Part shown: in pieces, positions 10,610 to 54,095 of the stretch | How positions within the stretch are numbered: the first letter of the stretch is position 1 | Layout: every line of letters begins with the position of its first letter | Assembly: GCA_016210005.1 (NCBI GenBank) | Contig: JACQVA010000207.1 | Location: 1 to 54,241 of the forward strand | Origin: Deltaproteobacteria bacterium | GTDB taxonomy: Bacteria; Desulfobacterota; Binatia; HRBIN30; JACQVA1 | Length of the DNA: 54,241 nucleotides | Reading direction: 5' to 3' | The notes under the pieces: model-generated | What the model was told of the DNA's origin: nothing | Seen by the model: only the letters and a program-made list of their open reading frames with translations | The model's database searches: none | Program-made: the position numbers and the translations under genes

Positions 10610-13168
10610 TCACAGCACCTGTTCGGTGCGGCTGATGATCTCGTCCTGGACGGCCGGCGTCAGCTCGACCCAGAAGGCGCTGTAGCCGGCCACGCGCACC
10701 ACCAGGTTGCGGTACTGCTCGGGGTGTTTCTTCGCTTCCAGCAGCGTCGCCTTGTCCAGAATGTTGAACTGGACGTGGAAGCCGCCCTTGTCGAAGTACG
10801 TTCCCATCAGCTCGGCGAACTTGTGCGCGCCCTCCTTCTTCTTGAGCATGCCGGGCGCGAACTTCATGTTCAGCAGCGGGCCTTCGATGAACATGTTGTC
10901 GAGCTTGGTGACCGAGTTCATCGTTGCCGTCGGGCCTTTCACATCGCAACCTTGCTGCGGCGAGGCGGAGGCGTCGGCCAGCGAGGTGCCGGCCTTGCGC
11001 CCGTTGGGCAGCGCGCCGGTGGCCTTGCCGGCCCAGGTCGACCAGGCCGCGCCCTGGCGGAACATGGTGAAGCGCCGTCCAAACCCGTCGCGGTACGACT
11101 GGCACTTGTCGATGGTGTACTTCCACATCTTCACGTGCAGCGAATCGGGCTCGTCCTCGTCGTTGCCGTACTTCGGCGCCGCCAGCAGCGCGCGCCGCAG
11201 CGCTTCGTGCCCTTCGAAGTCGGCCTTCAGCGCCTCGAGCACGTCGGCCATGGTGGCCTTCTTGTCCTCGAACACCACCTTCTTGATCGCGATCAGCGAA
11301 TCGCTGGCGTCCTGCAAGCCGCGATCGACGAAGCACCACGCCTCGAGCTGCTGGTAACGGCCGCCGCCGCGGGTGGCGTCCTTGCCCTCGCCGACGCAGT
11401 CCTGCAGGAAGGCGGAGATGAACGGGAAGTAGTTCGAGTCCTCGTAGTACACCTTCTCGATGGCGCGGAAGTTGTTCAGGCTGTACTCGTAGAAGTGATC
11501 CACCTGCTTGCGGTAAGCGTCGTAGAGCTCGTCCCAGGTTTGGAAGCCGCGCGGATCACCGGTTTCGATCCCGAGCTTGACGCCGGTGTGGGGATCGACG
11601 CCGTTATTCAGCGTGATCTCGATCAACTTGGCGTGATTGACAAACGAGACCACGGCGTTGCGCACCCAGGCGAAGCTCTTCGGGTACGAGGTATTGATGC
11701 AGCCGGCCATCGCCCAGTCGCGGGCATCGTCCCACTGCACGCCGCGATCGAGCAGGTACTCGGTGCCGAGGCGATCGTTGAACCAGGCGGGAATGCCGGC
11801 GCCGTGATCGCGGTTGCACTCGATGCCTTTCTGCAGCAGCTCGGGCGCCATGGCGCGGTGGTAGCGGATGGAGATGTGGGGCTGATGCGTCTTGAGCTGC
11901 TTGGCCACCTGCAGGATCAGGCACGACAGCTCGTTGGCGCCGTCGCGCCCATCGCGGCCCTGTCCACCGAGAGTGACATTGGCGAAGTAGTTCGACTGGG
12001 CGATCTCCTGATGGAACCGCTTGCCGAGCAGGCCCATGAACATGAACGGCTCCATCGAGGTCCACTTCATGAACATGCAGCCCATCAGCTCGGCCGCCTC
12101 CTGGCGGGTGATGCGGCCCTCGTTGATGTCGCGGGCGTAGTACGGCCACATGTACTGGTCGAAGCGGCCGATGAAGGCGTTGGTGTTGGCCTTCTCGATG
12201 TCGTGCCCGACGGCGATGAACCAGTAGGTCTGCAGCGCCTCATGGAAGCTGCGGGCCGGATTTGCCGGCGCCCACTCGCAGGCCTCGGCGATCCGCTCCA
12301 GGTCGCGCTTGCGCTCCGCGTTCTGCTCCGTTGCCGCCAGCTCGCGGGCGCGGGCGGCATAGCGGCGCGCGTGGGCGATCATCGCCTCGACCACGATGAT
12401 CACGGATTCCAGCCACTCGATCTTCTCGTTGTCCTCGTCGCTCAGCCCGCTACCATTCACGCTGGCCTTGATGCGCGCGATGTGGTCTTGGGCTTCGCGG
12501 ATAACGCCGTTGAAGCCGATGGCCAGCACCTTGTCGTAGTCCGCGCCCGGCGTGAAGCACATCGGCGTGTACGGCTGGCACATGCCCATGCGGGCCTCGC
12601 CGACCTTCTTCCACAGCCCGCCGTCCAGCGCCGTGATGATCTCCTCGGCGCGCTTGGCGACGTACTTGTCCTTCCAGTAATCGCAGGCGGCCAGCAGCCG
12701 GGCCTTGTCTTCCGGCTCCAGCACTGCCTCGGTGGTGGGCGACGCGGTTGTTGGCGGCTCGTGCTGATTCAAGATCCACGCGAGGTTGAGCGGCGCCAGC
12801 TCGACGTTCGGCAGCGCGCCGCGCAGGTAGCGCGTCGAGCCCCCGACCAGCAGCTCGTTGTCGCGGATCGCGATGGTCATGTTCAGGAGGACATTGGCGA
12901 AAGCCTTTGCCCGCCGCTTGGAGGGATGCTCGCCGTCGGTCTGCTTGTACGACTCGAGCATGAGCCAGGCGCGCTCGCCGTCCACGCTCGGCCGGGCGTC
13001 GAAGTACGCCTGTCGCAATTGCTCGATCCTGGGGCTCAACGCGTTGAGCTTGTCGATTTCATCGAGCGGTATCCGCTCCCGGACCGCGGGCGGTTCTTTG
13101 CGCGTTGTCGGGGTGCGGTCGGGGAGAACCTTCGGAGCAATCGATTGTGCGACAGCGGTTTCCATCAT
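10610..13168 (-). CDS. Glycyl radical enzyme (PFL2-like), substrate unknown
   Basis: An 852-residue glycyl radical enzyme. Seen: the C-terminal glycyl radical loop RVAGYSA (radical Gly828), GGFHVQFNILD just before it, GRKAGTSLADASASPQQG typical of the PFL2/dehydratase-decarboxylase clade, and the active-site thiyl loop AMAGCINTSYP with Cys490. Enzymes such as glycerol/choline/hydroxyphenylacetate members carry G-C-V-E, where Glu is the base two residues after Cys. Here the position is Asn, so a Glu-dependent elimination or decarboxylation is unlikely. The length is close to X-succinate synthases (about 850-870), but the usual small subunits are not adjacent. ATG 13168 or 13165 follows AAAGGATCTGG. 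The activase follows directly. The enzyme is oxygen-sensitive once activated, implying an anaerobic phase. The family is certain; the reaction is open. Confidence 0.93.
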   Translation of the reverse strand: MMETAVAQSIAPKVLPDRTPTTRKEPPAVRERIPLDEIDKLNALSPRIEQLRQAYFDARPSVDGERAWLMLESYKQTDGEHPSKRRAKAFANVLLNMTIAIRDNELLVGGSTRYLRGALPNVELAPLNLAWILNQHEPPTTASPTTEAVLEPEDKARLLAACDYWKDKYVAKRAEEIITALDGGLWKKVGEARMGMCQPYTPMCFTPGADYDKVLAIGFNGVIREAQDHIARIKASVNGSGLSDEDNEKIEWLESVIIVVEAMIAHARRYAARARELAATEQNAERKRDLERIAEACEWAPANPARSFHEALQTYWFIAVGHDIEKANTNAFIGRFDQYMWPYYARDINEGRITRQEAAELMGCMFMKWTSMEPFMFMGLLGKRFHQEIAQSNYFANVTLGGQGRDGRDGANELSCLILQVAKQLKTHQPHISIRYHRAMAPELLQKGIECNRDHGAGIPAWFNDRLGTEYLLDRGVQWDDARDWAMAGCINTSYPKSFAWVRNAVVSFVNHAKLIEITLNNGVDPHTGVKLGIETGDPRGFQTWDELYDAYRKQVDHFYEYSLNNFRAIEKVYYEDSNYFPFISAFLQDCVGEGKDATRGGGRYQQLEAWCFVDRGLQDASDSLIAIKKVVFEDKKATMADVLEALKADFEGHEALRRALLAAPKYGNDEDEPDSLHVKMWKYTIDKCQSYRDGFGRRFTMFRQGAAWSTWAGKATGALPNGRKAGTSLADASASPQQGCDVKGPTATMNSVTKLDNMFIEGPLLNMKFAPGMLKKKEGAHKFAELMGTYFDKGGFHVQFNILDKATLLEAKKHPEQYRNLVVRVAGYSAFWVELTPAVQDEIISRTEQVL

Positions 13169-13607
13169 CCAGATCCTTTCGACGGCGCCAACGCCGCGGC
13201 AGTGCTCGTGCGAGGCGCTTAGCCAGCGACCGGATTAGAGCACTTCTTCCCTGCCGCCGTCCAAGACAATGTTCTCATGGAATCCATACAAATCGGGTAT
13301 GCAGTCCCCTCTGGAGTGCGGCGGCTCGCCGCTTTCGCGCGGGCCAAGCGACTTGCAGACCACCCCACAACCCCGGCCCAAGCGGGAGCAAGCTCCCGCA
13401 CTCCAAAGTGAGCTGACGATGGCGCGCAGGCACCAACGCCGTTGCGGTGGACGCCGTCGTTCACGAGGACAAGCGCAAGAACATCCGACCGAAGAGCAGC
13501 GCTCCTTCGTGACCGCGGCCGGATTGCCAGGCGAAGTCCGGCACAGTAAGGGGAGTACTGGTTAGGACGCGCTGCTCACCGCGGCAGCGCACCTTGTCGA
13601 CCGACGC
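13169..13607. other. Intergenic region upstream of the glycyl radical enzyme
   Basis: No gene is supported. It should contain the glycyl radical enzyme promoter, but I cannot point to a clear one. It holds a REP-like inverted pair at 13313-13404 (separate entry). Frames crossing it read through that repeat and show no conserved motif. Confidence 0.5.
13313..13404. repeat. REP/BIME-like inverted repeat pair
   Basis: Two short palindromic units face each other. The left unit starts GGAGTGCGG and continues CGGCTCGCCGC. The right unit is GCGGGAGC-AA-GCTCCCGC (13382-13399) followed by ACTCC, so the outer ends GGAGTGCGG and CCGCACTCC are reverse complements. This is the architecture of bacterial interspersed mosaic elements. 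Similar GGAGTGCGG...CCGCACTCC units occur in other GC-rich genomes; copy number here is unknown. Confidence 0.55.
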
Positions 13608-15008
13608 TTATGGCCTGGCCCAGGGAACAGACTCCACCGCGCCAACATAGCCGCCCCGTTGTAACCGATTGCTGTACACTCCTCTGAAGCCGAACAGACT
13701 CAGCAAGCTCATTTCGAGGTACCAGAGCCCAAGTCGCCAGGCGTCCTCGCGCACTTCAAAGGCGCTTAGAGACCTTGCCTTGTTGAGCTTCTCCTTGAAC
13801 TCCTCGCTCCGCTTTGGGTGCACGAGGCTGTTCCTCACGAAGGCGAACCGCTCGGGGCCGTCGGATGGTTTATCGAAGGGTAGCGCCGCGACATTGGGGA
13901 GCAGCGGTGGAACCGCCGTCGGAATACCCAGGCACGTGAGGAGTCCCCTGAGCTTCTGAGCAGCAGAGAGGGACCTGTCGAACGGTTTCTCGGGGGTGCC
14001 TTGACCCACAACGAAGTGCATCCACGACAGCAGTTCCAGTGCGACCTGTGTGCTGACAATGCTGCCTTCGAGCGAGCCTGCGTTCACGTTTGCTTCGACG
14101 TACCAGTGGATCGCAAGCCTGATAGCCTCCCTCCAGTTGGGATCGGTCCATTTGGCCATAAATCCCGGGAAAGCCCCAGCTAACGACTCCGGATGGTGCA
14201 CGTCGGTCCAAGACAGAACGGCACGATGAGGAGTGGCCCGCCCAGCGGCCCACTCGGACCAGACTCGGTAACCGCCCGCGTCGTACGCTACGCGCAAGAT
14301 CCCGGGACTCCAGAAGCCGCGGGCGAATGACAGGAAGTAGTTCAGGCCGCCCAGGAAGTCGTCCGCCTCAGTGATCGGGAAGGAGCCACCGTCCGACCGC
14401 TCGACGCTCGCGAGGTGAGTTATTGCGTAGCCGTTCTGTGCGCAGGTTGCCTCCTGAAGCTGCTCGAATCCTCGCACGGCATCCATCGTGACTTTCCATC
14501 CCTCGGCTTCCAAGACCAGTCTGTCACTCGACGAGGTCACGGACTTCGGCGTGACGCGCCTTACCGGAGTACCGATGAACTCACGAAAGTTGACGAAGTG
14601 GATGAGAAGTCGGCGAAGGCCGTTCCCAGAACCGTGGCGTACAGGGTGGAATATGTTTCCAGCAATCCGGGTACTCGCAGCCCCACGGAAGTGGTCGATG
14701 TTCGCCGGGACGCAAAGATTGATCGTTGGCCCATTGATGATCGCTGGCCCCGTGCTGAGGAATGGCGAAGCGGCCTGCGTTGTGACGGTGAATCCAATGC
14801 GAGGAAACGGGAGCCATTCGAGCCGGATCGTGCCATTCCCCTCCACGCAATTCTTACCTTGAGTGATCTGAAGGGGACCTTCGTGCAGCTTGATGGATTG
14901 GTTCGGTCGCCGGGTGCGGTACACGGGGGCCAGCGGTCGCGGCACGCCACGTAGTTTCTTCAGGGTCTCGCGTCGCACCGCATTGCGCGACCCGCGGCCG
15001 TCCTTCAT
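13608..15008 (-). CDS. HEPN-motif protein, third gene of a PIN/HEPN operon
   Basis: A 466-residue protein I cannot assign to a named family. The N-terminal half is beta-rich and resembles a sensor or binding region; the C-terminal half is helical. It contains FVRNSLVHPK, where R392-N-x3-H397 is the R-x4-H signature of HEPN ribonuclease domains, followed by a conserved WRLGLWYLEMSLLSLFGF helix. Its ATG overlaps the PIN gene's stop by four bases (ATGA), so translation is coupled. A 25-codon stretch of its 3' end is duplicated, degraded, at 16534-16608, showing that related genes existed here. Known: HEPN proteins with this layout (ApeA-like and others) are RNases in toxin-antitoxin and antiphage systems. 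A function as effector RNase is inferred; it could equally be an inactive structural HEPN. Confidence 0.65.
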   Translation of the reverse strand: MKDGRGSRNAVRRETLKKLRGVPRPLAPVYRTRRPNQSIKLHEGPLQITQGKNCVEGNGTIRLEWLPFPRIGFTVTTQAASPFLSTGPAIINGPTINLCVPANIDHFRGAASTRIAGNIFHPVRHGSGNGLRRLLIHFVNFREFIGTPVRRVTPKSVTSSSDRLVLEAEGWKVTMDAVRGFEQLQEATCAQNGYAITHLASVERSDGGSFPITEADDFLGGLNYFLSFARGFWSPGILRVAYDAGGYRVWSEWAAGRATPHRAVLSWTDVHHPESLAGAFPGFMAKWTDPNWREAIRLAIHWYVEANVNAGSLEGSIVSTQVALELLSWMHFVVGQGTPEKPFDRSLSAAQKLRGLLTCLGIPTAVPPLLPNVAALPFDKPSDGPERFAFVRNSLVHPKRSEEFKEKLNKARSLSAFEVREDAWRLGLWYLEMSLLSLFGFRGVYSNRLQRGGYVGAVESVPWARP

Positions 15009-15430
15009 TCCGGTTCCTTGGTGGGCATGAGTACCGTAAAGCCCTCTTGGGCAAAGTGGTGGTCGTTGGCCAGCACCTCCGTCACGGATTCCAACGACAT
15101 CGCGTTCATCGACACGCAGTCCGTAAGGCTGTACTGCTTGTCGAGGCGTTGCCCATACAGATCCACACCTCGGAGGAAGGAATCGCGCGACTGGGGTAGG
15201 ACTCTCACGTTGGGATTCTCCATGATCGCACGCACCATGCGCACCGCTTGCCGGCGAAGCTGCTCGCCGCCCGCGGCGAGGCTCGTCAAGAACTCGGTGA
15301 GCACCTCGTCAGTCGTCACGATGATGGCTGGCCCCAAAGCCGCGCGTGCTCGCTTGGCGGCATCCGCCCATTGATCGCCCGGTCGGACGATGGCAACCCA
15401 GTAGAGTGTGTCCGCGAACACCAGCCTCAT
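15005..15430 (-). CDS. PIN-domain ribonuclease (VapC-like toxin)
   Basis: A 141-residue PIN-domain protein. The four acidic metal-binding positions are present in order: Asp7 in LVFADTLYW, Glu46 in DEVLTEFLTS (Glu42 is an alternative), Asp104 in YSLTDCVSM and Asp123 in VLANDHHF. This is the complete VapC-type active-site set. Known: such proteins cut tRNA, rRNA or mRNA and are neutralised by a partner encoded just upstream. Its start (ATG 15430) overlaps the stop of the upstream 303-residue gene by four bases, and its own stop overlaps the start of the HEPN gene by four bases. The upstream partner is far larger than a normal VapB antitoxin. The domain call is firm; calling it a toxin is inference. 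Confidence 0.85.
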   Translation of the reverse strand: MRLVFADTLYWVAIVRPGDQWADAAKRARAALGPAIIVTTDEVLTEFLTSLAAGGEQLRRQAVRMVRAIMENPNVRVLPQSRDSFLRGVDLYGQRLDKQYSLTDCVSMNAMSLESVTEVLANDHHFAQEGFTVLMPTKEPE

Positions 15431-16338
15431 TGCCGAGGCCAGCCATAGAGATAGTGGTCCAGGTTATCGCTAAGGTCGTTTGGTAGCTTGCTCCACTCCT
15501 CGGGGGGAACCTCTGCAGCCAATCCAGCAAGCACGTCTTCAACGGGAGGCGCAGCGCTGTCATAGCTCGGCTCACTGATCGGCTGCGGATGTAGTTGGTC
15601 CACGCGCGTGATCCGCAAGACCTTGCCCTGCGCCGACACCTCTCCGCTTCCCGTTACCCGGAGCCGACGAGTCCTGTGACCCTTCAGGGCATCTGTAACC
15701 TGTTCCTCTTGATCCGGGAAAAAGGGAACCGTGACGCTGGTCCGTTCGTCCAGCCACAGCTGAAACCGTCGCTGGCGGACGTCGGCTTCGAGCACTTCGC
15801 CGGTTACATCGATGAAGCTTTCGTGCTCAGGTTCGGCGAAGCTGGCCAAGCGGGATCGCGACACGGCTGTGAACCGCGTCGGTTCTCTACCGCGCGCCGT
15901 AATCTCGACGCTCTCGTCGTCAGTGAGTCCCTGTCCCCACTTTAGGTATTCGGGGATCAGCGACCGGGGAAACTTGTCGGGGAGCGGCGCATCTCGATCG
16001 AGCGCGCGAACGACATCCCAAGCCAGCGCAATTGCCTCGTCGACCTCCGTTGGCTCACGCTCATACAGTTCGTACTGAGGTTCGTCGATCAGCACTTCCA
16101 GCGGTGCCACCGCACTGCCTTCTTCGATTCGCCGCAGGCACAAGCGAGTACGGTCTTCGAACCGTTTCGGAAGTCTCTCACGATCCGGATTGGCCGTTCG
16201 CCACAGTGCCTTGGCGGTTTCGGCGACCATCCGCTGGAACTGGGTCAACTCGGCCAGAGCCGTGAGATCCAGCGCATGATCGCGAAACCGGTCCCCCTTG
16301 AAGGTCAGCCGGACGACCTCTTTCCATTGGCCAGCCAT
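15427..16338 (-). CDS. Unknown 303-residue partner of the PIN protein (possible antitoxin)
   Basis: First gene of the PIN/HEPN operon, with AAGGGAG before ATG 16338. The N-terminal 100 residues are helical (FRDHALDLTALAELTQFQRM...AETAKALW). The middle, roughly residues 170-265, alternates short strands (ESFIDVTGEVLEADVRQRRF, then RRLRVTGSGEVSAQGKVLRI) and looks like a small OB-fold-like beta-barrel. The C-terminal 40 residues (VPPEEWSKLPNDLSDNLDHY) resemble the disordered tail by which antitoxins occlude a PIN active site. I see no helix-turn-helix or ribbon-helix-helix DNA-binding motif typical of VapB. Translational coupling to the PIN gene supports a direct partnership. Domain boundaries are my reading of composition and spacing, not a fold prediction. 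Confidence 0.6.
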   Translation of the reverse strand: MAGQWKEVVRLTFKGDRFRDHALDLTALAELTQFQRMVAETAKALWRTANPDRERLPKRFEDRTRLCLRRIEEGSAVAPLEVLIDEPQYELYEREPTEVDEAIALAWDVVRALDRDAPLPDKFPRSLIPEYLKWGQGLTDDESVEITARGREPTRFTAVSRSRLASFAEPEHESFIDVTGEVLEADVRQRRFQLWLDERTSVTVPFFPDQEEQVTDALKGHRTRRLRVTGSGEVSAQGKVLRITRVDQLHPQPISEPSYDSAAPPVEDVLAGLAAEVPPEEWSKLPNDLSDNLDHYLYGWPRQ

Positions 16339-16479
16339 GTCTCCCTTCCGCTCTAGCGCCTGCCTTGGCTATTGCCAGCAACAAGCTACGACCATAGCGA
16401 AGTCCTTACGTACCTTGCAACAACCCGCAAGGGTCGGGAAAGGGTCCGGGGGAAACCCCTCACGCTGATCACTGTTCAA

Positions 16480-16608
16480 CTAGGCCGCCACGCCTACTTC
16501 GCCGGCACCGACGAGCCCTACGACAAACTCAAGATTGCTGTAGACCCCGCTGAAGCCGACCAGCCTAAGCAAGCTTAGTTCGAGGTACCAGAGTCCAAGT
16601 CGCCAGGC
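16480..16608 (-). pseudogene. 3' remnant of a second HEPN-motif gene
   Basis: Positions 16534-16608 match 13668-13742, the 3' part of the HEPN gene, in 66 of 75 bases, same orientation. The translation keeps frame: AWRLGLWYLELSLLRLVGF here against AWRLGLWYLEMSLLSLFGF in the intact gene. It then runs into a different short end with a TAG at 16480-16482. Homology stops abruptly at 16608. The intact gene's HEPN R-x4-H region is missing, so this is debris of a paralogue. Confidence 0.8.
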
Positions 16609-16714
16609 TCCGCTCAACGGCAGGCGATTGGTCTTCGGCATCGCTCCAGGAGATGTCTCCGGTGATTTGTTTCGTCTCGTCGGCTGGGAGTGCTTCGAAT
16701 TCGGCCCGCGTCAT
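16609..16714 (-). pseudogene. 5' remnant of an unknown small gene, fused to the HEPN debris
   Basis: From ATG 16714 the minus strand encodes about 35 residues, opening MTRAEFEALPADETKQITGD and continuing with a ISWSDAEDQSPAVE stretch, before losing sense where the HEPN remnant begins at 16608. Composition and motif density look like real coding sequence. I recall similar openings in uncharacterised proteins but cannot name the family with confidence. A deletion seems to have joined its 5' end to another gene's 3' end. Confidence 0.5.
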
Positions 16715-17053
16715 GGTTTACATTATCGCCCGTCTGGGAGCCTGACTGCAACCGCCGCCAGCTTGCTACCGGGCGACTCGCTACTGTGAGGCGTGCGCGT
16801 CCTCCGCCTCTTGGAGAGGGGGAATCTCGCCGACGTGGCCCCCGCCACCGGCAAGGTCGCCATCAGTGCGATCAACCACTGCGGGGATGATGCGCCCAAG
16901 GGTCCCCTTGGGTGTCCCGGGGCAGCATGCTACTAGCGTTGCCCGACATGCCCGTTGCGAATGCGAAACAGCCGCGTTGGATATCGCCTGGGGTGCGATC
17001 CGCGCTCGCGGGTTGAGCGGTGACGGGTTGGTCGGTGGGATCGGAGGAGCGCT
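16715..17053. other. Intergenic region, no gene seen
   Basis: No frame shows a recognisable motif with a ribosome binding site. It separates the minus-strand debris from the plus-strand sulfotransferase gene, whose GGAGGAG leader lies at its right end. Confidence 0.45.
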
Positions 17054-17665
17054 ATGGAGCTACGGGTCATTGGCGCTGGACTGGGGCGCACCGGGACGAT
17101 GTCACTCAAGCTCGCGCTGGAGCAGCTGCTGGGTGCGCGCTGCTACCACATGATCGAGGTGTTCGCGCACCCGGAACACGTGCCGGCGTGGCACGCGGCG
17201 GCTCGGGGTACGATGCCCGACTGGCGGGCACTGCTGGCGGACTACGCGGCCACCGTCGATTGGCCGGCAGCGTCGTTCTGGCCCGAGCTGAGCGCCGCGT
17301 TTCCCGAGGCGCTGGTGCTGCTGTCCGCGCGCGATCCCCAGGCGTGGTGGCAAAGCGCGAGTGAGACAATTTTCCCGGTGAGCGTGCGCGAGACCGGCCC
17401 GTGGCGGAACATGATCGATGCCGTCTTCAGTACCCGCTTCACCCTGGCATTGAACGATCGCGCCGCTGCCATCGCCGCCTACGAGCGTCATTACGCCGCA
17501 GTGCGGGCAGCGGTCCCGTCCCACCGCCTGATCGAGTGGCAACCGGGAGATGGTTGGCTGCCGCTGTGCACCGCGCTCGGCGTGCCGGTGCCCGAGGAGC
17601 CGTTTCCGCGCGTGAACACCCGCGCCGAGTGGCAGGCCGGACACGGTGGTGCCGGCGGCGAGTGA
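17054..17665 (+). CDS. Sulfotransferase-family P-loop protein
   Basis: A 203-residue protein opening with VIGAGLGRTGTMSLKLAL, the 5'-phosphosulfate-binding loop of the eukaryote-like sulfotransferase_4 group (GxGRTGTxS followed by a helix). A LLSARDPQAWWQSASETIF segment corresponds to the 3'-phosphate-binding region (R-D-P...W-x2-S). PAPS-dependent sulfation of a small molecule is the expected reaction. ATG 17054 follows GGAGGAGCGCT. The length fits the short single-domain form. It precedes an APH-like phosphotransferase by 72 bases on the same strand; a functional link is possible but unproven. The acceptor cannot be predicted. Confidence 0.82.
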   Translation: MELRVIGAGLGRTGTMSLKLALEQLLGARCYHMIEVFAHPEHVPAWHAAARGTMPDWRALLADYAATVDWPAASFWPELSAAFPEALVLLSARDPQAWWQSASETIFPVSVRETGPWRNMIDAVFSTRFTLALNDRAAAIAAYERHYAAVRAAVPSHRLIEWQPGDGWLPLCTALGVPVPEEPFPRVNTRAEWQAGHGGAGGE

Positions 17666-48477: not shown

Positions 48478-48999
48478 TCACCCCCCGCATCCAATCAGCG
48501 CATTGTTCACCGCCCGCACGAGTTCATCCACGGTGACGGTACCGCTGTCGTCAGTGTCGAAAGATGGGCAATCAGAGAGCAGCAGCGAGCCGAGGGCTAT
48601 GTTGACGCCTTTGACCAACTCGTCGACGGTGACCTGTTCATCGTCATCGCAGTTGCCGACGCAGGTGCTCGCAGGGGGCCCGGTTGCGGTCGGTGTCGGC
48701 ATGATCGTTGGTGTCGATGTTACCGTGGTGGTGGCGATCCACGTCGGCGAGGGCGTGTGCGTAACGGTCCCTGTCTCCGTCGCTGCCGGCGTTTCGGATG
48801 GCGATGGCGGCGGGGTCGGTTCTTCGATCGTGATTGCACCCGGACCGCAAGTGACGGGCACGAGGTTGCCGAACTCGTCCACCGCCTCGCATTGATCGGT
48901 AATCGGGTACGAACCGGGCGCCGCCGCCGGTTCCACCGCGAAACAGCACTGCAGCAGACCCGCAGCCGGCAGCGGCGCGACCGGCTCCGTGTGCGTCAT
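48478..48999 (-). CDS. Dockerin-like C-terminal ORF, copy D
   Basis: A 173-codon frame. After about 60 residues of a compact domain ([20 protein letters not shown], then [20 protein letters not shown]) comes a Thr/Pro linker and a two-repeat dockerin-like module: [50 protein letters not shown]. Its ATG (48999) overlaps the stop of the 1,699-residue gene (ATGA), and its frame stays open further upstream inside that gene's repetitive tail. It lacks a signal peptide, so alone it could not be exported. It may be the true C-terminus of the large protein displaced by a frameshift, a coupled gene, or the remnant end of another secreted protein. Confidence 0.55.
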
Positions 49000-51900
49000 G
49001 CCTGAGGACTCGGCGTTGCCGTCGGGGTTCGTGTTGGCGTGCAGGTGCCATGGGCGGTTCCACAGTAGCCAACGAACGTGCGCGTCGGCGTTGCGGAAGG
49101 CCGGCGGGTCCACGTGGCCGTCTGCGTAAACGTGGGCCGGCGAGTCCACGACGGCGTTGGGGTTGGCGACGGGCGTCGTGTGTTGGTGGGCCCGGGCGTG
49201 CAAGTCCCTCGCGCCTGCCCGCAGAACCCGAAGGGCGTTCGTGTCGCGGTAGGTGTGCGGCTCGGTCGTCGACTTGGCGTGAGCGTGGGCGTCATCGACG
49301 GCGCCCGTGTGTGGGTTGCCGTAGGCGTGCGAGTCGGCGTCGAAGTCGGGCGCTTCGTTGCAGTCCGCGTCGGTGTTGCCGATGGCTTGGAGGTGAACGT
49401 CGGCGTGTGTGTCCGCGTGGGGCGCAGAGTGAACGTGGGCGTACGACTTGGCGAAGGGATTCGCGTCGCAGTGATCGTGCGTGTCAAGGTCGAGGACGGT
49501 GTCGGCGTTGGCGTGCGGGTGCCTGTCTGGGTTGGCGTGTTCGTCCTCGTGCGGGTCGATGTTGGAGACTTTGTGGGGGTTCTTGTCGACGTAGCGGTCG
49601 GAGTGGTCGTGGGCGTTCTCGTAAACACGGCCGTGGGAGAGTTGCTGGGCGTTCGCGTCGCTGTTGGCGGTGACGTCGGCGACGGGGTCAGAGTGGGGGT
49701 GGGAGAAGCCGCCACTCCTGTTCCGTTCAGGAGCGCAATCTGCGGGCTGCCCGGTGCATTGTGGTTGATTGTGACGCTGGCGCTGCGGCTACCAACAGTT
49801 CCCGGTAGGAACCGTACGCTCAGTGCGCAGCTGCCACCCGGCGCAAGGTTCGCCGCTGAGCAGCCATTCGTGACGATTGAGAAATCTCCTGGATTGCTCC
49901 CCCCGAGCGCCACGGTGCCGATGTTCAACGTCCCGTTGCCGGTGTTCGTTACGATCAACGACTGGGGCGCGCTGGCCGTGCCCACCAGTTGGGTACCGAA
50001 TTGCAGCGCGCTCGCGTTCAAGGTTGTAGCTGGAGTGAGAGGCAGAGTGATGCGGCCAATCTTGCCAACGCCCTCGGTAAACCAAATATTCCCATCGGGC
50101 CCGCTGGTGATTCCAAGCGGGTTGCTGTTGGTAGTGGGAATCTGGAACTCCGCCAGTTGCCCATCCGGTGTAAGACGACCGATGAGATTCGCTTCCTGTT
50201 CGGTGAACCACACTGCGCCGTCTCGCCCTGACGCGATCCCAAGCGGGCTGCTCAGGTATGGCGAGACGAGCGAGACTGGGAACTCGGCGAAACTTCCGTC
50301 GGGCGTAATCCGGCCCACGTTTCCCGGAGACTGGCCCTGCTCAACAAACCAGACGTTCGCATCTGGACCCAAGGTGAGAGCGTGGGGCCCACCCTGCGCC
50401 CCGGGAAGGGGAAACTCATCGATCGTGCCGCCGGTCTTGATGCGACCAATCTTCTTCGCTCCCTGCTCGCCAAACCAGATGTCGCCATCGCTGCCGAGCG
50501 CAATCCCTGCCGGGTTCGCGCCTCCCGTTGGAATCGAGAACTCGGTGATCACCCCCGATGTTGTAATGCGTCCAACCCGGTTCCCGAAGCCCTCGGAGAA
50601 CCACAGGTTCCCGTCTGCACCGGTGACGATGAACCTTGCTCCACTGCCGGCAGTAGGCAAATCGAGCTTTGTGACCGCACCAAACGGAGTAACGCGACCA
50701 ATCTGGGCGCAGTTGTCGTCCGTGAACCACAGATTCCCGTCGGGGCCAGTAGTAATGGAGCAGGGGAACCCGGTGCTCGCCCGCCCTGGGCAATCAGCCA
50801 ACGTGGCAAATTCGACAACGCTGCCACTCGGCGTGATCCGCCCAATCTTGTTGGCGTCGGCTTCCGTAAACCAGAGATTTCCGTCGGGGCCGGACGTGAT
50901 GCCGAAGGGTTTGGCGCTCGAAGTGGGGACAGGAAATTCCACTACTGGGCCAGTGGTAACGGGGGATGTCCCCATTCCAGTCAGCTGAAGATCTTGAGGG
51001 CTATCTGGGGCGTCATCCGTCATCGTCAAAAAGGCTGTCCGCGGCCCTGAGCCGGTCGGCGTGAATCGTACGTCAAGCGAGCAGGTCACACCCACACCGA
51101 ACGTCGTTGGTGGGGTGACCCAGCCGCAGTTGTAGGTGTAGAAGGAAACACTGAAGTCGCTAGTGTTGGCTCCGGTCAGCACCATGCTCGTGATGTGGAG
51201 GGGCGACAGGCCGTTGTTGGTGAGGTCGAAGCGCTGGATCCTGCTCATGCTGCCAACCGGCTGACCGTTGAAGTCTAGGCTCGGCGGACTGAGTGTGGCC
51301 GCTGGGTTTCCAGGCAGTGTGCCGGTTCCACTCAACCGAATTGAGTGCGGGCTCCCACTGGCATTGCTCTCGAAGATGAGGTTCGCGCTGCGCGTTCCGC
51401 CTGCTTGAGGTCGAAAGCGAACGCCCATGGTGCAAGTCGCGTTCGGGGCCCAATTGCCCATGCAATTTGGATCCCGATCGAAGTCCGTCGGGTTCAGACC
51501 GGCAGGATAGATGTTCGTAATGCGCAACTCGGCGGTGCCGGTGTTCCTGACCGTAATGTTCTGCGTACCACTCGTTGTTCCAACCAGCTGACTGGCGAAG
51601 GCCAGACCACTCACGCTGAAGGTGATGGCTGGCGCAGGGGCCGACGGTCCGGCGATTCCGGTCCCACGAACAGGCAAACTTACCGTTTGCGGCCCACCGC
51701 CTGGGTTGTAGGCGACCGTGATGTAACCGCTCCGAACGCCCATAGCTTGCGCCGTGAATACCACCCCGAAGGTTGCTGCGCCGCCGGAAGGGAGCGACAG
51801 CGGCAAGGTGGGTCCGTTCGTGACATCGAAGTCCGGGTCGCCCGCCCCGCGAAAGATGTTTACGATCGTCATAGTGCTCGCCGTGACATTGCGCACCGTG

Positions 51901-54095
51901 ACGGTCTGGGTCGGGCTTGTGGTCCCCACTTCCTGATCACCGAACCCGAGGCTTGTTGGAAACAGCGTCACCGCGGCCCCCGTCGGGCTCGTACCCGTGC
52001 CTGTCAAAGCGACCGACCGTAGGCCACCCGGCGCGTTATCGGAGAACTGAAGTGCAGCAGTCCGATTCCCGATGACGGTAGGAACGAAGATCGCCGCAAC
52101 CGAACAAGCTGCCCCAACGTTGATCGTCGAGCCGGTGCAGGTATCGAAGGTCTTCTGAAAGTCACTGACGTGCGTGCCGACGATAGTAGCTTCCGTCACA
52201 GCCAGCGGGAGTGTACCAACATTCCTGACGACCACCGTTTGTGCCGCGCTTGGTGTACCGATTTGCTGATTCCCGAAGGTGAGCTGCGAACTGCTCAGGC
52301 TAACCTGCGGTCCCGCTGGCGCCACACCGCTCCCGCCCAACGACACGTGGTCCGGGCTAGTCGCCGCGTTGCTGCTGATCGTCAACGTGCCAGTGCGGTA
52401 GGTGGCTGTCTTGGGCAAAAACTGCAGCGCAATACGGCATGTGTCCTGCAGTGAGATCGTGCGGCCGGAACATGCATCAGCCGCCATGAGGAAGTCCCCG
52501 GTGTTGGTCAGGCTCACTCCGTCGATCTGCAGATCCGCGGTGCCGACGTTCGTCACCTGGACTATCTTCAATGCGCTCGCGGTATTCACGACCTGCGCAT
52601 CGAAGATGATTGAGCTGCGATCTAGCTGGACCACCGGAACGCCGGGGCTTGGTGGCGGCGAAGGGTAGGACCAACCCCAGGTGGTCTCGCTCCAGAGGTC
52701 GACGCCGTCTACCACGACGTGGACCCGATATAGGAAGCGAGTTGGTTGAGTGACACCCGGCGCGGTGATTGTGCTCAGAAACAGTCCGGGCGATTGCGGG
52801 TTCTGCTCGGTCGCCTGTGACGTTGTGTGGCATCCAGGCGTGACAGAGTCGGAACACGGGGCATTCGGGTCTGCAGGATCCGCACCTGAAGCCGCGGTAC
52901 TCCAATGCACATCAGCGTGGGTTACCCAGCGTCCCCAGTTGACGCGCCAACCCACGTCGTAGTGATGGCCAGCCACCATCGAGCGGAAAGGTGGTCGATT
53001 CTGCCACAGGACAGGCCGGGCATTGCGGAGGTCCTCTTCCAGCCAACTGAAGACGCCTGGACACCTCTTGGAAGGCAGCTCGTTGTGGTCGCAATCTTGG
53101 AACTCGCGGCTCTGCATGATCGGCCAAGTGCGAAATGTCGCACTCTCGATTGGTACGGCCCCATCGGTGTCGAAGTAGAGGTAGCCTAGACCCGGCGGGA
53201 AACCCCATCCAAGCCACAGGCTTCCCTGCTGCAGATCACCAGAGAAGTTGGTTGATTCGGCTCCGTAGGCCACGATCTTTGAGTAGAATCCATCGTCTCC
53301 GTTGCACGCTGCGCTCGTGTCATCGAAGCGATGGATAGAGGAGTGATTGTTCAAGCAACGAAGCCAGTCGTTCGTGCCCAGAACCTGCACCAGGTCGTAT
53401 TCGTCCCAGCGCATATCGGCCAGGAATCCCTGTCCAGCCCCGAAGAGCCGATTCTGCGCAGGCCCCGCGGCATAGCCGAAGTTCGCCAGTGGCGTGCCAT
53501 GGTGCGGCGTGCCCAGGGTGATTAGCCGCAGGGTCCTTACCCCGCCAGGGTCCGTTTCGGTGAAGTGCTGTTCTTGCATGAACGACCGCGCGACAAGACC
53601 GCCCATGGAATGTGCGACGATCACCATGGGGCGTTCCTTGAATCCGTACGGGACGGCCGGTTGATCGAACGCGACGATTTGCCTTAGCAGGGACGCCCCC
53701 AACTCGCCGATGTGTTGGGGATCGCTGGGAAGCAAGGCCCCGCCAGGAAAGCCAGGAAAGAGGGGGTCAACCGTGTCATAGGCGAAGAAGTACACCTTGT
53801 AGTCGTCGAGTAGGCGTGTGTCATTGTGAAGGTAGGTGACAAAGTCGTCCCACACGCGTTCGTAGGCCTGCGCGCCGACATACGACAGGCCGTGAATGAG
53901 GACGAGCGGGGTTCTAACGCCCAGCGGCTGCGTGTCACCGGACCACGGGAAGAGTCTCGGTGGGCTCGCTATCGCTACCTGCGAGAAGAGCAGAAGGGCG
54001 AACACCAATGCCGCACAGGAGTGGGTCAGCCGGGAGCTGACCCTGCCCGACTTGTGGCCTCTGGACACGGAGGTTGGATTGCGGTAGACGTACAT
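48996..54095 (-). CDS. Giant secreted protein: lipase-like, HYDIN/ASH-like and Vgb-propeller domains with a Thr/Pro tail
   Basis: A 1,699-residue exported protein. A signal peptide ends near VAIASPP (44). Residues about 60-330 are an alpha/beta hydrolase: oxyanion region [10 protein letters not shown] and nucleophile elbow [13 protein letters not shown] (Ser163). Then come several HYDIN/ASH-like 'choice-of-anchor D' domains, each with V-R-N-x-G-T/L and F-x-P motifs (for example [20 protein letters not shown]). About seven virginiamycin-B-lyase-type propeller blades follow ([20 protein letters not shown]; the G-P-D-G-N-L/I-W-F-T-E blade recurs), then another ASH-like domain ([20 protein letters not shown]). 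From about 1458 to the end it is Thr/Pro/Arg-rich ([20 protein letters not shown]). Likely a surface-attached enzyme. The start ATG 54095 has a weak ribosome binding site. The stop overlaps the dockerin ORF. Confidence 0.8.

What the first reader, a model, noticed from the sequence alone, without database searches (positions are those of the whole stretch)
13608..16338. Coupled operon of OB-like protein, PIN RNase and HEPN-motif protein
Three genes are joined by two four-base ATGA overlaps. The PIN protein has a full acidic site; the last protein has R-N-x3-H, the HEPN signature, and a beta-rich N-terminal half. The first protein is three times the size of a usual VapB, lacks a visible DNA-binding motif and has a barrel-like middle. 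Two different RNase folds under one coupled operon suggest a defence or stress system with a sensor, rather than a plain VapBC pair.
Basis: partly seen in the sequence, partly recalled or inferred. Interest (0 to 1): 0.73.

Follow-up and report, generated by a model that had tools for sequence, protein, structure and literature searches.

The report
Toxin-antitoxin pair plus borrowed HEPN gene
Two of the three genes look like a toxin and antitoxin pair whose antitoxin carries an elaborate sensor-like head and a short reusable tail that probably silences an RNA-cutting toxin, while the third gene is a separate RNA-cutting defence-type protein that has settled behind them in this genome.

Summary
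In detail: three minus-strand ORFs (303, 141, 466 aa) joined by two ATGA overlaps, a PIN protein with four acidic residues, R-N-x3-H in the last. Models support an OB barrel in the first and, less firmly, a HEPN bundle in the last. The reading as one three-gene system is not supported: in 6 of 6 other loci with the first protein the PIN follows, but in the 5 with at least 3 kb held behind it no such HEPN gene does; in 13 of 13 other loci of the HEPN family this PIN family is absent. The core is a VapBC-like pair. Its antitoxin is a hybrid: head and OB barrel of phage-defence candidate PDC-M32A, with the usual C-terminus and partner replaced by a ~46-residue tail and a VapC20-like PIN. The tail recurs on other heads before the same PIN family, and alone in Microcystis phages. 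The pair lies in or beside restriction or methylase genes in 3 of 6 relatives. The third gene is a YopA-family (phage SPbeta) protein found elsewhere in BREX or restriction loci; a 3' stub of a second copy lies upstream. New variant of a known kind; mechanism inferred.

The parts
15427..16338 (-). Gene 1, antitoxin/sensor protein P0001 (303 aa): PDC-M32A-type head and OB barrel plus C-terminal tail
   Evidence: ORF; PDC-M32A 9.7e-43 over residues 6-249, positions 4-250 of a 375-position profile; AF2 model from a two-sequence alignment, mean pLDDT 66.7
15574..15825 (-). OB-fold barrel, residues 172-255 of P0001
   Evidence: secondary structure; VIA-align best Z 9.1, rmsd 4.2, 80 aligned; Foldseek alone gives no match below E 0.038
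15430..15567 (-). Portable PIN-antitoxin tail, residues 258-303 of P0001
   Evidence: tail HMM (P0001's tail is one of the 10 it was built from) with 9 new tail ORFs
15005..15430 (-). Gene 2, PIN-domain RNase P0002 (141 aa), VapC20-like
   Evidence: profile A5 hits VapC20 at 2.2e-14; acidic residues invariant; P0002 itself has no Pfam hit at E<=1, but 4 of 4 relatives scanned pass the Pfam PIN cut-off
13608..15008 (-). Gene 3, YopA-family HEPN-motif protein P0003 (466 aa)
   Evidence: SPBc2 yopA 26% identity over 92% of the query, 8e-33
13695..14180 (-). HEPN-like helical region, residues 277-438 of P0003
   Evidence: block pLDDT 73-92 except 62 at 271-280 and 55-65 at 331-350; the VIA rows on this part are HEPN toxin 8xdj_C Z 6.2 and Csm6 6tug_H Z 4.3
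13818..13835 (-). RNSLVH, the R-x4-H motif (R392, N393, H397)
   Evidence: invariant in 9 of 9 rows
15015..15019 (-). AAGGA, ribosome-binding-site-like, 6 bases before the gene 3 ATG
   Evidence: read from the sequence
16341..16347 (-). AAGGGAG, ribosome-binding-site-like before the gene 1 ATG
   Evidence: read from the sequence
16498..16614 (-). 3' stub of a second copy of gene 3 (remnant)
   Evidence: 67% identity to residues 421-459, E 1.8e-8; 76-base direct repeat at 88%

Best explanation
Genes 1 and 2 are a type II toxin-antitoxin pair used for defence. The PIN protein is an RNase toxin, by kinship most likely cutting 23S rRNA of the ribosome. The antitoxin neutralises it through its C-terminal ~46-residue tail; its helical head and OB barrel, shared with phage-defence candidate PDC-M32A, act as a sensor (the OB barrel probably for nucleic acid) whose engagement during infection frees the PIN and stops translation. 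Gene 3 is a YopA-family HEPN RNase, an independent, mobile defence effector that was captured behind the pair in this genome and is translated with it. Shown: ORFs, overlaps, homologies, recurrence of the tail before this PIN family, defence-gene neighbours of relatives. Inferred: neutralisation by the tail, sensing by the head, the RNA targets, RNase activity of gene 3, any joint action.
For: Pair conserved: in 6 of 6 other loci with a gene 1 relative of full length (L001, L026, L027, L028, L049, L060) the PIN follows with an ATGA overlap. Tail as a module: a tail-only query found 3 plasmid ORFs of 102 aa, each directly before a PIN-length ORF; the two whose PIN I compared are 44% identical to P0002. 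Nine further tail ORFs in class relatives: full PIN of this family behind 6 (in L061 after a 175-base gap), truncated PIN behind 2, sequence ends in 1. PDC-M32A relatives of the usual kind give no tail hit, and the ORF behind them is PDC-M32B in 3 of 3 scanned. Defence context: pair between type III Mod and Res ORFs in L026, between HsdS and an HsdM piece in L028, directly behind an N6/N4 methylase ORF in L071. The PIN family's only PDB match at E<=0.01 is VapC20, described as cleaving the 23S sarcin-ricin loop unless bound by VapB20 (PMC7891357, passages). Gene 3 family in BREX, type I restriction loci and beside ApeA.
Against: No toxicity, neutralisation or phage data. Restriction or methylase context in 3 of 6 relatives; L001 lies between trpA-like and rhomboid-like ORFs (by reading), L027 has a YchF-like GTPase downstream and L049's neighbours scanned have no Pfam hit. 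In this window 10 further ORFs within about 15 kb have no PADLOC hit and the three nearest are metabolic types. A VapC20 match does not fix the target RNA. Tail confidence in the model is low (pLDDT 31-65). P0002 itself misses the Pfam PIN model.
Confidence: 0.6

Rival explanations
1. A genuine three-gene defence system: the antitoxin holds both the PIN and the HEPN effector in check and releases both on infection.
For: Two ATGA overlaps and a ribosome-binding-site-like AAGGA at the end of the PIN gene; lowered GC3 in all three genes (0.67-0.78, against 0.82-0.91 in 5 of 6 other window ORFs and 0.71 in the sixth); both halves have defence-linked relatives.
Against: No second case in 5 other pair loci with enough sequence or in 13 other HEPN-family loci; besides the window's own genome, 1 of 148 class genomes has matches to both profiles, on different contigs.
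Confidence: 0.17
2. A plain stress or addiction VapBC-like pair with no defence role; the HEPN gene is a passenger.
For: VapC20-like PIN; the tail also sits on short, ordinary-looking antitoxins; toxin truncated and antitoxin kept in L064 and L065, as expected of addiction modules; no defence genes found near it in this window.
Against: PDC-M32A head; position in or beside restriction or methylase genes in 3 of 6 relatives.
Confidence: 0.18
3. The pair is a guard of restriction operons, freed when a phage disables them, in the manner of PrrC (recalled comparison).
For: Position between Mod and Res (L026), between HsdS and an HsdM piece (L028), behind a methylase (L071).
Against: No restriction genes found beside it in this window (13 ORFs scanned) or, by reading, in L001.
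Confidence: 0.05

Closest known systems
VapBC type II toxin-antitoxin (VapC20 branch)
   Same: PIN toxin with four acidic residues, VapC20 the only PDB match of its profile at E<=0.01; overlapping antitoxin gene upstream; neutralising C-terminal tail inferred
   Different: Antitoxin is ~300 aa with a PDC-M32A head and OB barrel; no DNA-binding domain found by Pfam
PDC-M32 (PADLOC phage-defence candidate, A+B)
   Same: Residues 6-249 of P0001 match PDC-M32A at 9.7e-43
   Different: C-terminus and partner replaced: tail + PIN instead of the M32A C-terminal part + M32B
YopA family (Bacillus phage SPbeta yopA)
   Same: P0003 aligns over 92% of its length, 26%, 8e-33
   Different: Located behind a PIN pair; other loci are phage, BREX-like, restriction or plain contexts
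ApeA
   Same: Beta-rich N-terminal half and helical C-terminal half with Rx4H; a YopA-family gene lies beside a true ApeA in L056
   Different: No match to ApeA models at E<=0.1 for P0003; profile comparison with one ApeA insignificant
Panacea (PanA) antitoxins
   Same: Modular antitoxins with a putative sensor domain and swapped toxin partners (PMC10440598, passages)
   Different: A different domain as far as known; no sequence comparison made here

Membership tests
VapBC (type II TA) | PIN toxin with conserved acidic site | tested here: met
VapBC (type II TA) | Adjacent upstream antitoxin gene, overlapping or close | tested here: met
   ATGA overlap in the window and in 6 of 6 other loci
VapBC (type II TA) | Small antitoxin with DNA-binding N-terminus | tested here: not met
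   303 aa; M32A head and OB fold, no DNA-binding Pfam hit. So VapBC-like, not filed as a standard VapBC
VapBC (type II TA) | Toxicity and neutralisation | not testable with these tools
   needs an expression assay
PDC-M32 | PDC-M32A protein over its full length | tested here: not met
   only positions 4-250 of 375 match
PDC-M32 | PDC-M32B partner | tested here: not met
   P0002 has no PADLOC hit at E<=1
YopA family | Near-full-length homology to SPbeta YopA and to proteins NCBI names 'YopA family protein' | tested here: met
   6 of the 10 E. coli records listed bear that name; family HMM
HEPN superfamily | Rx4-6H motif conserved | tested here: met
   9 of 9; motif as given in PMC3710099, passages
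HEPN superfamily | HEPN helical fold | tested here: inconclusive
   the only VIA rows over 288-442 are HEPN proteins, but Z is 6.2 and 4.3; Foldseek gave no match with E below 0.1
ApeA | ApeA_NTD1 and HEPN_Apea profiles | tested here: not met
   no hit for P0003; one of 9 family members at E 0.17
BREX / restriction accessory | Core BREX or restriction genes beside it in this window | tested here: not met
   none among 3 nearest ORFs (Pfam) and 10 further ORFs (PADLOC); the rest of the window was not scanned

The most novel reading that the evidence does not exclude
A portable ~46-residue antitoxin tail is a plug-in by which one VapC20-like PIN RNase family is put under the control of many different heads (PDC-M32A/OB, OB only, HicB-like, RHH-like, GIY-YIG-like, nearly bare), turning phage-defence candidate heads into PIN triggers; and Microcystis phages LMM01 and MaMV-DL carry the bare tail as a free antidote against such host PIN toxins. 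By the same logic PDC-M32 would itself be a head-plus-adaptor toxin-antitoxin system with M32B as the toxin.
Probability: 0.3. Interest if true: 0.75.

Novelty: new variant of a known kind. Interest (0 to 1): 0.55.

Why it matters
It ties an uncharacterised phage-defence candidate head (PDC-M32A) to a toxin type whose chemistry is known, which makes its trigger testable. It shows antitoxin heads and toxins being recombined through a short tail, points to a possible phage antidote, and gives the YopA family of phage SPbeta a predicted HEPN nuclease role and recurrent places in BREX and restriction loci.

Tried and rejected
Three-gene system: looked for and not found elsewhere. From gene size I first took the ~140-aa neighbour of the plasmid homologues (L012-L014) for the PIN; it is PDC-M32B, and checkpoint note 1 carries that early error. 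PDB match 9hnh to P0001 (E 0.00023) is two weak repeats of about 11 bits each and was dropped. PDB profile matches of A1 and A3 are insignificant. VIA rows at P0003's N-terminus (Hcp-like, PilZ and others; Z up to 6.8) rest largely on low-confidence residues and are not used. Foldseek for P0003 gave no match with E below 0.1. HEPN families not listed by VIA are not excluded. ApeA: profile comparison with one ApeA sequence, probability 0.2%. Sigma-70 promoter scan of 13200-17100: none found; terminator-like sites at the shuffled rate. Relatives of the phage ORF P0005 on plasmids by tblastn: none at 0.1. Viral contigs, 7 scans: no relative of P0001's family and one locus each of P0003's family, none. 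DNA search of 39 relatives with the operon: outside the own genome only two short matches of 68 and 26 bases, not pursued.

Literature: no paper found for 'YopA family protein', for two of yopA/SPbeta/HEPN, for yopA with PIN domain, HEPN and defense or with BREX and accessory; yopA with Bacillus subtilis and prophage gave one paper, seen in the listing only. PDC-M32: one paper, PMC12429752, passages seen. 'Phage defence candidate' with PADLOC: 4 papers, listing only. Ma-LMM01 with antitoxin: 9 papers, 8 listed; passages of PMC5780444 seen, none on this ORF. VapC20: 39 papers, 8 listed; passages of PMC7891357 seen. PMC3710099 and PMC10440598: passages. These searches cover one open-access library, so absence is weak.
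Full report
What is there. On the minus strand of the window three ORFs follow one another: P0001 (15427-16338, 303 aa), P0002 (15005-15430, 141 aa) and P0003 (13608-15008, 466 aa), with ATGA overlaps at both junctions. By reading, P0001 has AAGGGAG and P0003 has AAGGA at ribosome-binding distance before their ATG and P0002 has nothing similar, as expected of a coupled gene (sequence). P0003's ATG start gives about 20 residues more than most relatives have before the conserved part, so an internal start is possible; the AAGGA favours the overlapping start. The three nearest neighbours are a PFL-like glycyl-radical enzyme, a sulfotransferase and an APH-type kinase; ten further window ORFs between 4195 and 28916 have no PADLOC hit at 1e-5.

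Gene 2 is a PIN RNase. P0002 itself has no Pfam or PADLOC hit, but 4 of 4 relatives scanned pass the Pfam PIN cut-off, and the profile of six family members finds only VapC20 (two sequences) in the PDB at E<=0.01 (2.2e-14). D7, E46, D104 and D123 are invariant in 6 of 6 rows and by reading each aligns with an acidic residue of VapC20. VapC20 is described as cleaving 23S rRNA in the sarcin-ricin loop within the ribosome unless bound to VapB20 (PMC7891357, passages).

Gene 1 is a hybrid. Residues 6-249 match PADLOC's PDC-M32A profile at 9.7e-43, but only positions 4-250 of 375. The model (two-sequence alignment, mean pLDDT 66.7) has a helical head and a beta-beta-beta-alpha-beta-beta barrel; the VIA-align rows lie over about 171-257 and are nearly all proteins I know as OB folds (PriB, SSB, RPA, OBodies), best Z 9.1, while Foldseek alone gives no match below E 0.038. 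PDC-M32A relatives on plasmids (L012, L013, and by alignment L014) continue with another C-terminal part, and the ORF behind them is PDC-M32B in 3 of 3 scanned, not PIN. In L029 and L050 the following ORF resembles M32B by eye only.

The tail. The last ~46 residues of P0001 are shared with proteins that otherwise differ. The P0001 search brought in L002, where a 113-aa ORF shares only this tail and precedes a PIN. A tail-only query against plasmids found 3 records, all cyanobacterial, each with a 102-aa ORF directly before a PIN-length ORF that matches this PIN family's HMM; two of the three are near-identical Stanieria sequences. An HMM of 10 tails (these, L002 and six of the pair) was then used. 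In the window's class, 12 of 148 genomes, the own one included, matched the pair's antitoxin profile, six of them over the tail alone. Of the 11 new loci bear the tail: full P0001 type (L060), OB plus tail without the helical head (L061, L062), short leaders (L064-L066), an RHH-like leader (L069; Pfam RHH only at E 0.085) and a GIY-YIG/T5orf172-like head (L067 and L068, nearly the same protein; T5orf172 E 0.0017, just below its cut-off). A full PIN of the family follows in 6 of the 9 (L060, L061 after 175 bases, L062, L066, L068, L069); in L064 and L065 only about its first 29 residues remain; L067 ends 65 bases behind the tail. 'HicB-like' for L057 and L058 is my reading (Pfam UPF0150-like at E 0.014 for L058, nothing for L057).

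A phage copy. P0001's search of phage records gave only Microcystis phages (4 records, E 9e-4). The match is a 61-aa ORF that is little more than the tail. The tail HMM, built without it, scores it at 6.7e-15 among 4503 ORFs. Behind it lies a Bro-N/KilAC protein, no PIN of the family lies in the 6.2 kb held, and tblastn with one such PIN (P0009) finds none in the phage collection at 1e-3. A phage-borne antidote is a natural reading; nothing here tests it.

The pair across genomes. Of 395 genomes spread over the phylum, 8 (own included) match the antitoxin profile; 5 match over its whole length, tail included, and 3 only over the M32A part. The whole-length loci other than the window are L001 (a Phycisphaerae contig), L026 (G164), L027 (G093), L028 (G198), L049 (G397) and, from the class search, L060/L071 (G436, profile 6-299, a more diverged tail, E 4.2e-7). 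The PIN follows with an ATGA overlap in 6 of 6. The YopA-family HMM finds nothing in any of them, but behind the PIN only 366 bases are held for L060/L071, so the test counts 5 of 5 loci with 3.0-7.0 kb. In L026 the pair lies between a type III methyltransferase and a ResIII ORF; in L028 between HsdS and an HsdM piece, with an HsdR C-terminal piece and a transposase-like ORF upstream; in L071 it starts 71 bases behind an N6/N4 methylase ORF, with a Schlafen-AlbA_2 ORF before that. L001 shows no defence gene by reading; two neighbours of L049 have no Pfam hit and one of L027 is a YchF-type GTPase.

Gene 3 is a YopA-family protein with a HEPN motif. It matches SPbeta (SPBc2) yopA over 92% of its length, 26%, 8e-33, and 6 of 10 E. 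coli records listed name the relative 'YopA family protein'. R392, N393 and H397 are invariant in 9 of 9, fitting the Rx4-6H motif that PMC3710099 gives for HEPN (passages). The model (three sequences, mean pLDDT 61.7) is confident mainly in the helical part; there the only VIA rows are an AMPylated HEPN toxin (8xdj_C, Z 6.2, 114 aligned, 3.2 A) and Csm6 (Z 4.3). These Z values alone are middling. It is not an ApeA by profile.

Where gene 3 relatives live. Thirteen other loci were collected (L007-L011, L030-L032, L046, L053-L056; L046 and L055 are both SPbeta-like, L047 is a second E. coli copy of L011's gene). None has this PIN family or the tail within the 1.1-7 kb held on each side; other PIN families were not sought. 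L030 is BREX by PADLOC: BrxC, PglXI, [YopA family], BrxHI, PglZ, BrxA. L031 has a methylase, [YopA family], an SNF2-type helicase and PglZ by Pfam; L053 looks alike by eye. L009 has an annotated methylase ahead and a sigma factor and SNF2 protein behind, L010 a methylase-like protein ahead and a helicase behind; L011/L047 have HsdM and HsdS behind; L056 has a true ApeA behind and an ADP-ribosyltransferase-like ORF ahead. L007, L008, L032, L054 and the SPbeta-like phages show no such partner by annotation or by eye; they were not scanned. One further relative, L070, lies in a genome that also has an M32A-type match, on another contig.

History at this locus. A 76-base direct repeat at 88% (13667-13742 and 16533-16608) is the 3' end of gene 3 present a second time upstream of gene 1, on the same strand; the stub spans 16498-16614, and a local alignment of the intergenic stretch to gene 3 finds only that piece. 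GC3 of the three genes is 0.67, 0.78 and 0.72; of six other window ORFs computed, five lie at 0.82-0.91 and one (48996-54095) at 0.71, so the hint of recent arrival is mild. I infer that this spot once had a YopA-family gene and that the pair, with the present copy, was inserted or exchanged there.

How it most likely works. Antitoxin tail on the PIN: inferred from the tail being the constant partner of this PIN family across different heads. Head and OB barrel as sensor: inferred from PDC-M32A kinship and the OB fold. Release on infection, ribosome cleavage and growth arrest: inferred from VapC20 kinship and the restriction-gene neighbours of relatives. Gene 3: an independent RNase effector, co-translated here. 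Modular antitoxins with a sensor-like domain and swapped toxins have a precedent in Panacea antitoxins (PMC10440598, passages).

Verdict. The pair is a VapBC-like toxin-antitoxin with a defence-type head (new variant of a known kind) and an accessory HEPN-motif gene behind it. The tail's reuse on other heads and in a phage is the most interesting part.

Noticed in passing
L048:3055-3240 (Microcystis phage MaMV-DL02; also in LMM01): 61-aa phage ORF that is nearly only the antitoxin tail; a PIN of that family was not found in the phage collection. Possible free antidote.
   Followed up: partly
window 16498-16614 (-): 3' stub of a second YopA-family gene upstream of gene 1, 88% identical over 76 bases to the intact copy's end.
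   Followed up: yes
L064:1355-1746 and L065:1283-1710: Tail antitoxin intact while the PIN keeps only about its first 29 residues: toxin lost, antitoxin kept.
   Followed up: yes
L067:916-1647, L068:709-1554: The tail fused to a GIY-YIG/T5orf172-like head; in L068 a PIN follows.
   Followed up: partly
L030:22-14945: YopA-family gene between PglXI and BrxHI of a BREX operon.
   Followed up: partly
L056:4285-7889 (viral contig): ADP-ribosyltransferase-like ORF, YopA-family gene and a true ApeA in a row.
   Followed up: no
window 13302-13415: Imperfect inverted repeat (28-nt arms, 75% complementary) between the operon and the PFL-like gene.
   Followed up: no
window 10610-13168 (-): PFL-like glycyl-radical enzyme (Pfam 2.1e-161) next to the operon.
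   Followed up: no
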